Part shown: one piece after another, positions 36,635-40,891 of the stretch | Layout: each line of letters opens with the position of its first letter | Numbering within the stretch: the stretch's first letter is position 1 | Source: Hyphomonas neptunium ATCC 15444 | Lineage (GTDB): Bacteria; Pseudomonadota; Alphaproteobacteria; Caulobacterales; Hyphomonadaceae | Length of the DNA stretch: 64,000 nucleotides | Assembly: GCF_000013025.1 (NCBI RefSeq) | Contig: NC_008358.1 | Coordinates: 682,001-746,000, forward strand | Direction: 5' to 3' | Notes under the pieces: generated by a model | What the model was told of the DNA's origin: nothing | What the model saw: the letters and a program-made list of their open reading frames with translations, nothing else | The model's database searches: none | Translations under genes and position numbers: made by a program

Positions 36635-38020
36635 ATGACCGACACCGCCTACGACTATGACCTGTTCGTGATTGGCGGTGGTTCGGGGGGCGTGCGCGCG
36701 GGCCGGATTGCGGCGCAGGCAGGCGCAAAGGTCGCCCTTGCTGAAGAATACCGCATGGGCGGCACCTGCGTCGTGCGCGGCTGTGTGCCGAAGAAGTTCA
36801 TGGTGTATTCCAGCACCTATGGCAAACACATCAAGCTCTCTGCCGGGTACGGATGGTCCGTGGGCGACGTATCCTATGACCATAGCGCGTTCATGGTGGC
36901 GCTGCACGCCGAGGTCGAGCGGCTGTCGGCGATCTATGACCGCAACCTCAAGAATGCCGGGGTTGATGTGTTCGATGACCGGGCCGAATTCGTGGACGCG
37001 CATACGCTGCGCCTGAAGAAATCCGGCAAGACGGTCACGGCCGGGAAAATCCTGATCGCCACGGGTGGCCGCCCCTGGATGCCGTCGGCAGACGAGCTGC
37101 CCGGCATTGAGCACGCCATCGATTCCAACGGCGTGTTCGAAATGGACACGCTGCCAAAGCGGATGCTGATCGCGGGCGGGGGCTATATCGCAGTCGAGTT
37201 TGCCCACATCTTTGCCGGGCTCGGCGCTGAGGTAACGCTGGTCTATCGCGGCGAGACCGTGCTGCGCGGCTTTGACGATGAGATCCGCCTCGCCGTGCAT
37301 GAGGGCCTGAAGGAGGCCGGCGTGCGCGTCGTCACCAAGTGCACCTTCAAATCCATCGAGAAAACCGGGGGTGGCCTTATGGTCACCATGAGCAGCGGTA
37401 ACGAGATCGACACCGATGTGGTGCTGATGGCGGTTGGCCGCCGGGCGAATACGGATGATCTTGGCTGCGACAAGGCAGGCGTGAAGCTGGCCGAGCAGGG
37501 CGAGGTGATCGTCGACGAATGGTCGCGCACAAATGTGGAGAACATCTGGGCGGTGGGCGATGTCACGGGCCGCGTGGCGCTCACCCCTGTCGCCATCCGC
37601 GAAGGCCACGCCTTTGCCGATACAGAATTTGGTGACAAGCCCTGGAAGATGGATCACTCGAACATTCCGACCGCCGTGTTCACCCAGCCGGAAGTCGGCA
37701 CCGTCGGCATCTCCGAAGCCGAGGCACGCAAGACGTTCGGCGAGATCGATATCTACAAGACCAAATTCCGCCCGATGAAAAATATGCTGAACGGCGACCA
37801 GACACGCACGTTCATGAAGCTCGTCGTGCGTGCCTCTGACCAGCGCGTCCTGGGCGTGCATGTGGTGGGCGAGGACGCTGCCGAGATGATCCAGACCGCC
37901 GCCATCGCTGTGAAGATGGGCGCCACAAAGCAGGATTTCGACCAGACCTGCGCGCTGCACCCGTCATCTGCCGAAGAACTCGTCACGATGCGGACCAAAT
38001 GGGTACCTGAGGGCGTTTGA
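36635..38020 (+). CDS. gor: Glutathione-disulfide reductase
   Basis: This FAD flavoprotein reduces glutathione disulfide with NADPH. The 461-residue product has the FAD motif FVIGGGSGGVRAGRIA, the redox-active disulfide in GGTCVVRGCVPKK (Cys45 and Cys50), a second dinucleotide fold (LIAGGGYIAVEFAHIFAGLG) and the C-terminal interface His region (CALHPSSAEELVTM). The family and the VRGCVPKK variant fit glutathione reductase. It is downstream of rpiA, an association common in alphaproteobacteria. Confidence 0.92.
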   Translation: MTDTAYDYDLFVIGGGSGGVRAGRIAAQAGAKVALAEEYRMGGTCVVRGCVPKKFMVYSSTYGKHIKLSAGYGWSVGDVSYDHSAFMVALHAEVERLSAIYDRNLKNAGVDVFDDRAEFVDAHTLRLKKSGKTVTAGKILIATGGRPWMPSADELPGIEHAIDSNGVFEMDTLPKRMLIAGGGYIAVEFAHIFAGLGAEVTLVYRGETVLRGFDDEIRLAVHEGLKEAGVRVVTKCTFKSIEKTGGGLMVTMSSGNEIDTDVVLMAVGRRANTDDLGCDKAGVKLAEQGEVIVDEWSRTNVENIWAVGDVTGRVALTPVAIREGHAFADTEFGDKPWKMDHSNIPTAVFTQPEVGTVGISEAEARKTFGEIDIYKTKFRPMKNMLNGDQTRTFMKLVVRASDQRVLGVHVVGEDAAEMIQTAAIAVKMGATKQDFDQTCALHPSSAEELVTMRTKWVPEGV

Positions 38021-38054: not shown

Positions 38055-39362
38055 TCAATGCCGCGTCATCGCGTCATTCAGTCCACGGATTTCGAGTGCC
38101 ACCTGTGTCAGGCTTTCGCGGATCGCTTTCAGCCCGCCGCCGCGCCCGGCATGGATGACGAGCTGCCGCCACGCAGGTTGACCATCCTGCGGGGCTTTCA
38201 CCGCGAAATGCCCCGAGCGGGGCAGGGCGGCGGTCAGCAGCGCTTTGGACAGCGCAAAGCCCGCCGCGCCATCAAACACGCCATTGCGGGCATCTGCCTC
38301 GAAGGTCGATTGTTCATTGCGGTTCACCGCGTTGAACAGGATGCGCAGGTCGGGCCGTTTATAGTCTTCCACCTGGTTCTGGATCACCTGGTTGAGCAGG
38401 CGCACGCCGCGCAGGGAATAAATGTCCGCATGCATCGGCGCGATTACGCGGTCGGCTGCTTCCAGCGCGCAGCGCGTCAGGAAGGTGGCGTTGGGGTTGG
38501 TATCAAACACGATGAGGTCATACGCGCTGCGGTAATGCTCCACGCAGCGCAGGAAATGCTGCTTCACGGCGGCGAGCGCGTCGGGATCGCCTGAGAAGGC
38601 GTATTTGGAAATCTCGAACTGGCCGGAGATGATGTCGAGGCGCCCCGGCGGGCCGTCGCTGCCAAGAATGGGGTGTGCGAACTGATCGCGCGGCGCAGGT
38701 GTAAACGGCTGAGTGGTGAGGCCGAGCCAGTTTTCTGCCGGGGAGGCCGCGTCGCGCGCATGCAGGCGCGAGCGCTCGAACAGGGAGATCACCGAGCGGT
38801 CCTGCGCGGAGGACGCATCGGCCAGCTCCATCGGATAGAAGGTCTGGGTGAGGTTATATTGCGGGTCGAGGTCGATCAGCAGGACGCGCCCGCCAAAGGC
38901 CGCCTGCCAGGCGCCGAACACCTGCCCGGAAACGGTGGTTTTGCCCACCCCGCCCTTGAGGTTCATGACCGCAATGACCGGGCATTTTTTCCGGTAAGCT
39001 TCCTGCGTCTCCGAGACGAGCTGCGCCAGCCCGTCCGGCATCGAGGAGGAGAGGCGCAGATCGGGCTGAACTTCCTGTTTGAAGAAGCCGTTCAGACGCG
39101 CCTTGTCGACCTGATAGGGAATGCGTTTGAGGCCAAGCGCCTTGGCCGCTTCGACATCCTGGCGCACCCATTTGGAGCGCACAGCCGCGGCCGAAACCAG
39201 CACGATGACGGCAAATGCCTTGTCGATCGCCGCATCAGCCTCCTCGCGTGAGGTGTCTTCGCCAGGGTAGAATACCGTAACGGAAGCGGCCCGCAGCGCT
39301 TCATGCAATGCGAGCAGGGCGTCCGGGTCTTTGCCCGAATGGCTTATGTATACGTGCGACAT
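38055..39362 (-). CDS. TIR domain fused to a ParA-type ATPase
   Basis: The 435-residue product joins two domains. Residues 1 to about 90 look like a TIR_2-type fold: VYISHSGKD opens strand A, EADAAIDKAFAVIVLVSAAAV gives strand C and its preceding helix, then SKWVRQDVEAAKALGLKRIPYQV. In NAD-cleaving TIRs the residue four after the conserved Trp is Glu; here it is Asp69 (W65-V-R-Q-D). Residues about 128-430 form a ParA/MinD-like ATPase with deviant Walker A KGGVGKTT (136-143), Walker A' LLIDLDPQYNLT and Walker B DLIVFDTNPN. No ParB or parS-like partner is adjacent. The ATG at 39362 begins the TIR fold. Function is unknown; partitioning, signalling and defence are all possible. Confidence 0.8.
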   Translation of the reverse strand: MSHVYISHSGKDPDALLALHEALRAASVTVFYPGEDTSREEADAAIDKAFAVIVLVSAAAVRSKWVRQDVEAAKALGLKRIPYQVDKARLNGFFKQEVQPDLRLSSSMPDGLAQLVSETQEAYRKKCPVIAVMNLKGGVGKTTVSGQVFGAWQAAFGGRVLLIDLDPQYNLTQTFYPMELADASSAQDRSVISLFERSRLHARDAASPAENWLGLTTQPFTPAPRDQFAHPILGSDGPPGRLDIISGQFEISKYAFSGDPDALAAVKQHFLRCVEHYRSAYDLIVFDTNPNATFLTRCALEAADRVIAPMHADIYSLRGVRLLNQVIQNQVEDYKRPDLRILFNAVNRNEQSTFEADARNGVFDGAAGFALSKALLTAALPRSGHFAVKAPQDGQPAWRQLVIHAGRGGGLKAIRESLTQVALEIRGLNDAMTRH

Positions 39363-39514
39363 GTGGCCCCGCGCCTCATGAATCTTCTGTCTGAATCGGC
39401 CTTGTAACGGGCCAACCCGCGATTCCGCCACCTTCTTGCAGTGAAATTATGGTGAAACTTGAGCAATGGGCGCTCATATGTTTTATGCGGCAAAATCCAA
39501 GTGAGAACCGAGCA

Positions 39515-40891
39515 ATGACCTGGCATCCTTCCGACTGGCGCAATCTGCCTGCCAAGCACATCCCGCAGGATTATCCTGATGCGGCGGCCCTGGCAGCTGT
39601 CGAAACCCGTTTGAGAAGCTATCCGCCGCTGGTGTTTGCCGGGGAAGCGCGCCGCCTGAAGACGCGCCTGGCAGAAGTTGCGGCCGGCAAAGCCTTCCTG
39701 CTGCAAGGCGGGGACTGCGCTGAGAGCTTCAAGGAATTCCACCCGGACAACATCCGCGACACCTTCCGCGTCATCCTCCAGATGGCTGTGGTGCTGACCT
39801 TCGCCGCCGCAAAGCCGGTCGTGAAAGTCGGCCGTATCGCCGGCCAGTTCGGCAAGCCGCGCTCTGAACCCATCGAGACCATCGACGGCGTGACGCTGCC
39901 TTCCTATCGCGGCGACAATATCAACGGCATGGAATTCACGCCCGAGTCCCGCATCCCGGACCCCGAGCGCCTGATCCAGGCCTATTCGCAGTCAGCCGCC
40001 ACGCTGAACCTCCTGCGCGCCTTCAGCCAGGGCGGCTATGCCAGCCTTGCGAACGTCCAGCGCTGGATGCTCGGCTTCGTTGACCGCTCCCCGCAGGGCG
40101 AGCGCTATCAGAAGCTGGCTGACCAGATCTCCGCCTCGCTACGCTTCATGGAAGCGGTCGGCCTCAATGCCGAGAGCGTTCCGCAGATGTCGCAGGTGGA
40201 GTTCTATACCAGCCATGAGGCGCTGCTGCTGGGTTATGAGGAAGCGATGACCCGCATCGATTCCACCAGTGGCGACTGGTATGACACCTCCGCCCACATG
40301 CTGTGGATCGGCCACCGCACGCGCCAGATCGACCATGCCCATGTCAATTTCTGCAAGGGCGTCAAAAACCCCATCGGCATCAAGTGTGGCCCCGGCATGG
40401 AGACCGACGAACTCCTCCGCCTGATCGACACGCTCAATCCCGCAGACGAGCCCGGCCGGATCACGCTGATCTCGCGCTTCGGTTCCGAAGGCGTGAAAGC
40501 GGGCCTGCCCCCGCTCGCCCGCGCGGTGAAGAAATCCGGCCGCACGGTCGTCTGGTCATGCGATCCGATGCACGGCAACACGCTGAAAACCGGCACCGGC
40601 TTCAAGACACGGCCCGTTGACCGCATCCTCTCCGAAGTGCGCCAGTTCATCGACGTGCTCTCGGCCGAAGGCTGCTATCCCGGCGGCGTCCATTTCGAGA
40701 TGACCGGCCAGAACGTCACCGAATGTATCGGCGGCGCGCAGGCGATCTCCGAAGAAGACCTCTCCAGCCGCTACCACACCCATTGCGACCCCCGTCTCAA
40801 TGGCGAACAGGCCCTGGAACTTGCCTTCCTCGTGGCTGAGAAACTCCAGGCCGCTGAAGTCGAAGCCGCCACGGCCCGCAAAGCGGGCTAA
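39515..40891 (+). CDS. Class II 3-deoxy-7-phosphoheptulonate synthase
   Basis: This DAHP synthase condenses phosphoenolpyruvate and erythrose-4-phosphate as the first step of aromatic amino acid synthesis. The 458-residue protein is of the plant-like class II type: [48 protein letters not shown] and [12 protein letters not shown] are family blocks that include Mn and substrate ligands. The ATG at 39515 ([21 protein letters not shown]) matches the family N-terminus; the open frame upstream is discounted. It is divergent from the TIR-ParA gene with about 150 bases between. Confidence 0.94.

What the first reader, a model, noticed from the sequence alone, without database searches (positions are those of the whole stretch)
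38055..39362. TIR domain fused to a ParA/MinD-type ATPase, with Asp in place of the catalytic Glu
The sequence directly shows VYISHSGKD ... SKWVRQDVEAA ... IPYQV (a TIR_2 pattern) followed by a full ParA ATPase with KGGVGKTT. TIR domains in bacteria usually make or cleave NAD-derived signals or bind protein partners, and ParA ATPases form ATP-dependent dimers or filaments on DNA or membranes. A fusion could couple ATP-driven assembly to TIR activity. The position that is Glu in SARM1-type and many prokaryotic TIR NADases (Trp + 4) is Asp69 here, so the domain may be catalytically weak, specialised, or used only for TIR-TIR contacts. No ParB, parS or known effector lies next to it, so it may be a one-gene system. 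I know of no described role for this architecture.
Basis: partly seen in the sequence, partly recalled or inferred. Interest (0 to 1): 0.78.

Follow-up and report, generated by a model that had tools for sequence, protein, structure and literature searches.

The report
TIR-domain ParA ATPase, catalytic residue lost
Hyphomonas bacteria carry a conserved chromosomal ParA-type ATPase, of the kind that moves or positions things inside cells, fused to an immune-type TIR domain that has lost its NAD-cutting residue but is still kept by selection, so the TIR domain probably serves as a protein-binding part rather than as a toxin.

Summary
Window 38055-39362 (-) encodes a 435-residue TIR-ParA fusion (Pfam TIR_2 4e-10, AAA_31 1e-25; confident AlphaFold2 model). 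Residue 69 is Asp where SARM1-type TIR NADases have Glu. The gene is not defence-island cargo. It is single-copy in all 37 Hyphomonas genomes searched and lies head-to-head with aroG in every Hyphomonadaceae locus that retains its upstream flank. In 54 distinct orthologues residue 69 is Asp or Gln, never Glu, and Trp65 is kept in three. The TIR region is nevertheless under purifying selection as strong as that on the ParA part (dN/dS about 0.03-0.15 for most pairs).

A second family of the same order has relatives at the same aroG locus. Most keep Glu, and nearly all are followed by an overlapping gene for a small, very basic, helical protein (29 of 31 genomes), which looks like a ParA partner. 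That partner is absent from Hyphomonas.

Best explanation: an orphan ParA-type positioning or assembly ATPase whose TIR domain is a non-enzymatic interaction module. Cargo unknown. I found no published description of this architecture in the open-access library searched.

The parts
38055..39362 (-). TIR-ParA gene, 435 aa plus stop
39054..39362 (-). TIR domain, residues 1-103
   Evidence: TIR_2 match at 4-103; alternating strands and helices in the AlphaFold2 model, pLDDT about 88-95
39156..39158 (-). Asp69 codon, position of the SARM1-type catalytic Glu
   Evidence: Asp or Gln in 54/54 distinct lineage members
39168..39170 (-). Trp65 codon, retained in only 3 of 54 lineage members
38982..39053 (-). 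linker with helix joining TIR to ParA, residues 104-127
   Evidence: least conserved part, mean pairwise identity 0.475; helix 111-126
38058..38981 (-). ParA/MinD-type ATPase domain, residues 128-435
   Evidence: (Soj/ParA folds)
38934..38957 (-). deviant Walker A KGGVGKTT (residues 136-143), signature Lys136
   Evidence: K136, G137, G138, G140, K141, T142 invariant in 48 homologues
38859..38873 (-). Walker A' DLDPQ, residues 164-168
   Evidence: D164, D166, Q168 invariant
38502..38516 (-). Walker B region ending at invariant Asp287
39515..40891 (+). aroG (class II DAHP synthase), divergent neighbour kept next to TIR-ParA
36635..38020 (+). gor-like glutathione reductase, converging neighbour on the other side of the slot
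39441..39462 (+). 11-bp direct repeat (GTGAAATTATG GTGAAACTTGA) in the shared intergenic region, possible operator
   Evidence: conserved in Hyphomonas

Best explanation
The gene encodes an orphan, chromosomal ParA-type ATPase with an N-terminal pseudo-enzymatic TIR domain. Inferred mechanism: ATP binding dimerises the ParA part, which then binds the nucleoid; the TIR domain, brought together by that dimerisation, docks onto itself or onto a TIR- or receiver-like partner and so carries or recruits a cargo or regulator; ATP hydrolysis resets it. The ancestral form was probably a two-gene cassette (TIR-ParA plus a small basic partner that, like ParB, McdB or MinE, would stimulate the ATPase). 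In the Hyphomonas/Henriciella lineage the partner and the TIR catalytic residues were lost while the TIR fold was kept, so TIR contacts may have taken over the partner's role. Shown here: architecture, conservation, absence of Glu, selection, synteny, partner association. Inferred: dimer cycle, nucleoid binding, interaction role of TIR, direction of partner loss. Unknown: the cargo.
For: Domains and model. Intact ParA ATPase motifs, invariant in 48 homologues. One copy in each of 37 Hyphomonas genomes and the aroG-adjacent position in all Hyphomonadaceae loci whose aroG side is held, so a vertically kept core gene. The same slot between aroG and gor, in the same orientation, in L108 of a second family; the slot is empty, with gor next to aroG, in relatives lacking the gene (L194-L197). 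Residue 69: Asp 37, Gln 17, Glu 0 in this lineage, against Glu in 23/28 and 7/7 in the relatives. TIR dN/dS mostly 0.03-0.15, like ParA. Small basic overlapping downstream gene in 29 of 31 second-family genomes, pI 10.3-10.4 in the two checked, all-helical model. [quoted passage not shown]
Against: No cargo, partner or localisation data for this protein. Nucleoid binding was not tested; the C-terminal basic patch was judged by eye only. Some close relatives have lost the gene, so it is not essential across the family. Asp might support weak catalysis. The partner's link to ParA is by gene position and composition only.
Confidence: 0.5

Rival explanations
1. Anti-phage defence: the ParA part and partner sense infection and switch on a TIR NADase or cyclase; the Hyphomonas version is a defence protein with altered chemistry.
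For: TIR domains are common defence effectors; weak PADLOC matches to TIR-SAVED and ThsB families; seven scattered relatives all keep the Glu.
Against: Core gene at a fixed housekeeping locus, no defence neighbours beside it, no copies found on phages or plasmids, catalytic residues lost throughout this lineage. PADLOC PDC-M28B, the one ATPase-type hit, lacks a TIR.
Confidence: 0.17
2. A regulator of the adjacent aroG (aromatic amino-acid pathway) or of its own divergent promoter, using ParA-type DNA binding.
For: Head-to-head with aroG in two families; a conserved direct repeat in the shared intergenic region in Hyphomonas. Some ParA proteins autoregulate (general knowledge).
Against: The repeat was not found in Henriciella or second-family loci; several relatives keep aroG in place without the gene.
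Confidence: 0.15
3. A specialised, still active TIR enzyme using Asp or Gln at position 69, gated by ATP-driven ParA assembly.
For: TIR region under strong purifying selection; Asp is acidic like Glu.
Against: 17 of 54 lineage members have Gln and 51 of 54 lack the Trp, which is hard to square with a conserved active site.
Confidence: 0.08
4. The still unidentified driver of the second chromosome-segregation step (through the stalk) in Hyphomonas neptunium.
For: That step is active and its mechanism is reported as unknown (PMC6650430); this is an additional ParA-type ATPase in every Hyphomonas genome searched.
Against: Also present in Henriciella, which to my knowledge does not bud through a stalk.
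Confidence: 0.04

Closest known systems
ParA/Soj nucleoid-binding partition ATPases (e.g. T. thermophilus Soj 1wcv, H. pylori Soj 6iub, pNOB8 ParA 5k5z)
   Same: Deviant Walker A with signature Lys, DLDPQ, Walker B, overall fold
   Different: Extra N-terminal TIR domain; no adjacent parB or parS; a small basic protein of another family in relatives
SARM1 and bacterial TIR NADases (AbTIR, 7uxr TIR protein)
   Same: TIR sequence profile with the residue-69 column aligned to the SARM1 catalytic Glu
   Different: Catalytic Glu replaced by Asp or Gln; Trp mostly lost; fused to ParA
McdA-McdB, ParA-ParB and other ParA/MinD-partner pairs (PMC10241942)
   Same: ATPase followed by a small charged protein in the two-gene relatives
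   Different: Partner family reaches no Pfam cut-off and has no meaningful match among solved folds; absent in Hyphomonas
CpaE/TadZ (receiver-like domain fused to a ParA/MinD ATPase; from my own knowledge)
   Same: Flavodoxin-like N-terminal domain on a ParA/MinD ATPase
   Different: N-terminal domain here matches TIR, not receiver; no Tad pilus genes adjacent
PADLOC PDC-M28B
   Same: About 438-residue protein with a ParA-like ATPase from about residue 128
   Different: KGGVGR motif, no TIR, different operon

Membership tests
ParA/MinD (deviant Walker A) ATPases | KGGxGKT Walker A with signature Lys, Walker A' Asp, Walker B Asp | tested here: met
   invariant in 48 homologues; AAA_31 E=1e-25
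ParA/MinD (deviant Walker A) ATPases | ParA fold | tested here: met
   model pLDDT 89.7; best PDB matches are ParA/Soj, E=2e-12
ParA/MinD (deviant Walker A) ATPases | ATP-dependent dimer; nucleoid or membrane binding | not testable with these tools
   needs biochemistry
ParABS partition system | adjacent ParB and parS | tested here: not met
   neighbours are gor and aroG; no small gene conserved downstream in the lineage; parS sites were not searched for separately
TIR domain superfamily | TIR profile match | tested here: met
   TIR_2 over cut-off; 48/48 homologues at E up to 0.001; SARM1 profile match
TIR NADase/cyclase enzymes | catalytic Glu at the SARM1 E642 position | tested here: not met
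   Asp69 here; 0/54 Glu in the lineage
TIR NADase/cyclase enzymes | NAD cleavage activity | not testable with these tools
   assay proposed
Anti-phage defence system | patchy distribution, defence-island or mobile context | tested here: not met
   vertical core gene in Hyphomonas at a fixed locus; not found on phages or plasmids

The most novel reading that the evidence does not exclude
A TIR domain recruited out of immunity to serve, without catalysis, as the cargo- or self-assembly module of a chromosomal ParA-type positioning ATPase, replacing the lost small partner protein; its Glu-bearing two-gene relatives would link TIR signalling to ParA-driven spatial organisation.
Probability: 0.35. 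Interest if true: 0.75.

Novelty: new variant of a known kind. Interest (0 to 1): 0.52.

Why it matters
TIR domains in bacteria are studied mostly as NAD-consuming immune effectors. A vertically inherited TIR without the catalytic Glu, held by purifying selection and fixed to a ParA ATPase in every searched genome of a model budding genus, would be a clear case of a TIR used for cell organisation or regulation. Relatives that keep the Glu and a dedicated partner provide natural comparisons, so whether TIR activity, TIR contacts or both are coupled to a ParA cycle becomes directly testable.

Tried and rejected
PADLOC PDC-M28B looked like the same architecture by profile position, but its members are KGGVGR ATPases with an unrelated N-terminus in a different operon. 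Searches for TIR-ParA on plasmids, phages and viral contigs gave only the ParA half or RepA; the viral scan used exact peptide patterns, so it reaches close relatives only. Class and phylum surveys gave no full-length TIR-ParA outside the order, but scored only 4 candidates per genome. The partner model (pLDDT 79, pTM 0.49) has no meaningful PDB match; weak Pfam hits for partners are below cut-offs. A search of the own genome for the intergenic repeat used a mis-spaced pattern and is not evidence; it was not repeated genome-wide with the correct spacing. Literature searches for TIR plus ParA gave nothing on this fusion.

Full report
Observation. The minus-strand ORF 38055-39362 encodes 435 residues. 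Pfam finds TIR_2 at residues 4-103 (E=4e-10, over cut-off) and AAA_31/CbiA from residue 129 (E=9.7e-26). An AlphaFold2 model from 48 homologues has mean pLDDT 89.7 and pTM 0.86; its best PDB matches are ParA/Soj proteins. A profile of the TIR segments matches SARM1 and other TIR structures, with SARM1 'WVHKE' aligned to the family's 'WVxxE', so residue 69 is the catalytic-Glu position and is Asp in the window.

Where it lives. Relatives come from Hyphomonas and Henriciella; the 3,705,021-base single-contig genome fits Hyphomonas neptunium (inference from size and relatives; PMC6650430 gives 3.7 Mb). The gene is present once in 37 of 37 Hyphomonas genomes. In the Hyphomonadaceae loci it sits divergently beside aroG wherever that side is held, and usually gor, rpiA and glmU follow on the other side. 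Some close relatives lack the gene, with gor directly next to aroG (L194-L197). A second family of the order has roughly 25-35% identical full-length homologues, many next to aroG and head-to-head with it; in L108 the gene lies between aroG and gor as in Hyphomonas. Shared slot and orientation argue for one ancestral locus. The ParA tree puts 47 of the 48 TIR-bearing rows in one clade (93/90) but is uncertain at long branches and does not prove a single origin.

The TIR domain. In 54 distinct members of the Hyphomonas/Henriciella lineage, residue 69 is Asp (37) or Gln (17), and residue 65 is Trp in 3. In the second family's core set Glu is kept in 23 of 28 and Trp in 20 of 28; in seven scattered, more diverged TIR-ParA proteins Glu is kept in all. 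Loss of the catalytic residue therefore looks derived in this lineage. Pairwise Nei-Gojobori dN/dS for residues 1-103 is mostly 0.03-0.15 (one pair 0.24), similar to the ParA part. The domain is constrained although the enzymatic signature is gone. This favours a structural or interaction role (inference).

The ParA domain. Walker A, A' and B residues are invariant across 48 homologues, so ATP binding and hydrolysis are probably intact. A conserved basic C-terminal stretch in the lineage (GRGGGLK) is compatible with nucleoid binding, but this was not tested.

A partner gene that the window lacks. In the second family and in the scattered relatives, TIR-ParA is followed, usually with overlapping stop and start, by a gene of about 130-140 codons. 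A profile finds it in 29 of 31 TIR-ParA genomes of that family; of the other two, one has a divergent version and one contig ends inside TIR-ParA. It was found in none of the Hyphomonadaceae genomes searched with that profile, although one of these (G136, not of the Hyphomonas lineage) carries a scattered TIR-ParA with a divergent partner (L114). Neither profile finds a significant match in the own genome (best E=0.36; none at E up to 10). Two checked examples have pI 10.3-10.4; the model is all-helical with no PDB match. By position and charge it resembles the partner proteins of other ParA/MinD ATPases, which act through positively charged stretches (PMC10241942). No small gene is conserved downstream in the Hyphomonas lineage. 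Partner loss rather than gain is inferred from its presence in both the second family and the scattered relatives.

Mechanism. I judge an orphan ParA-type positioning or assembly ATPase with a non-enzymatic TIR module most likely (0.5). Defence (0.17), regulation of aroG (0.15), an unusual active TIR (0.08) and stalk-directed DNA movement (0.04) are the rivals considered. The cargo is not known.

Limits. Genome surveys sampled part of each group, and the class and phylum surveys scored few candidates per genome. dN/dS is a simple counting estimate. The literature library holds open-access papers only.

Noticed in passing
L002 856-1770 (-), own genome about 1993603-1993860: A second TIR protein in the genome (304 aa, apparent transmembrane segment), between an ATP-synthase b-like gene and a ychF-like gene, with Ala at the catalytic-Glu position: possibly another non-enzymatic TIR.
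   Followed up: partly
window 39441-39462: 11-bp direct repeat GTGAAATTATG/GTGAAACTTGA between TIR-ParA and aroG, found once per locus in most Hyphomonas loci; possible operator or part of the aroG promoter.
   Followed up: partly
L108 6654-8123 (-); L199 6029-7245 (+): The gor-aroG slot in some relatives holds a different, TIR-less ParA with its own small protein ending in KLFDY, unrelated in sequence to the TIR-ParA partner.
   Followed up: partly
L124 1498-3527 (+); L125 1399-3533 (+): TIR-less ParA followed by about 145-residue and 235-residue proteins, a three-gene cassette of unknown role in other class members.
   Followed up: no
L126-L140: PADLOC PDC-M28B: KGGVGR ATPase with a second large ATPase-like gene and often a small upstream gene; unrelated to TIR-ParA beyond the ATPase.
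   Followed up: partly
L097 6729-8470 (+): Downstream of one Glu-bearing TIR-ParA pair lie two genes of 199 and 349 aa without confident Pfam matches.
   Followed up: no
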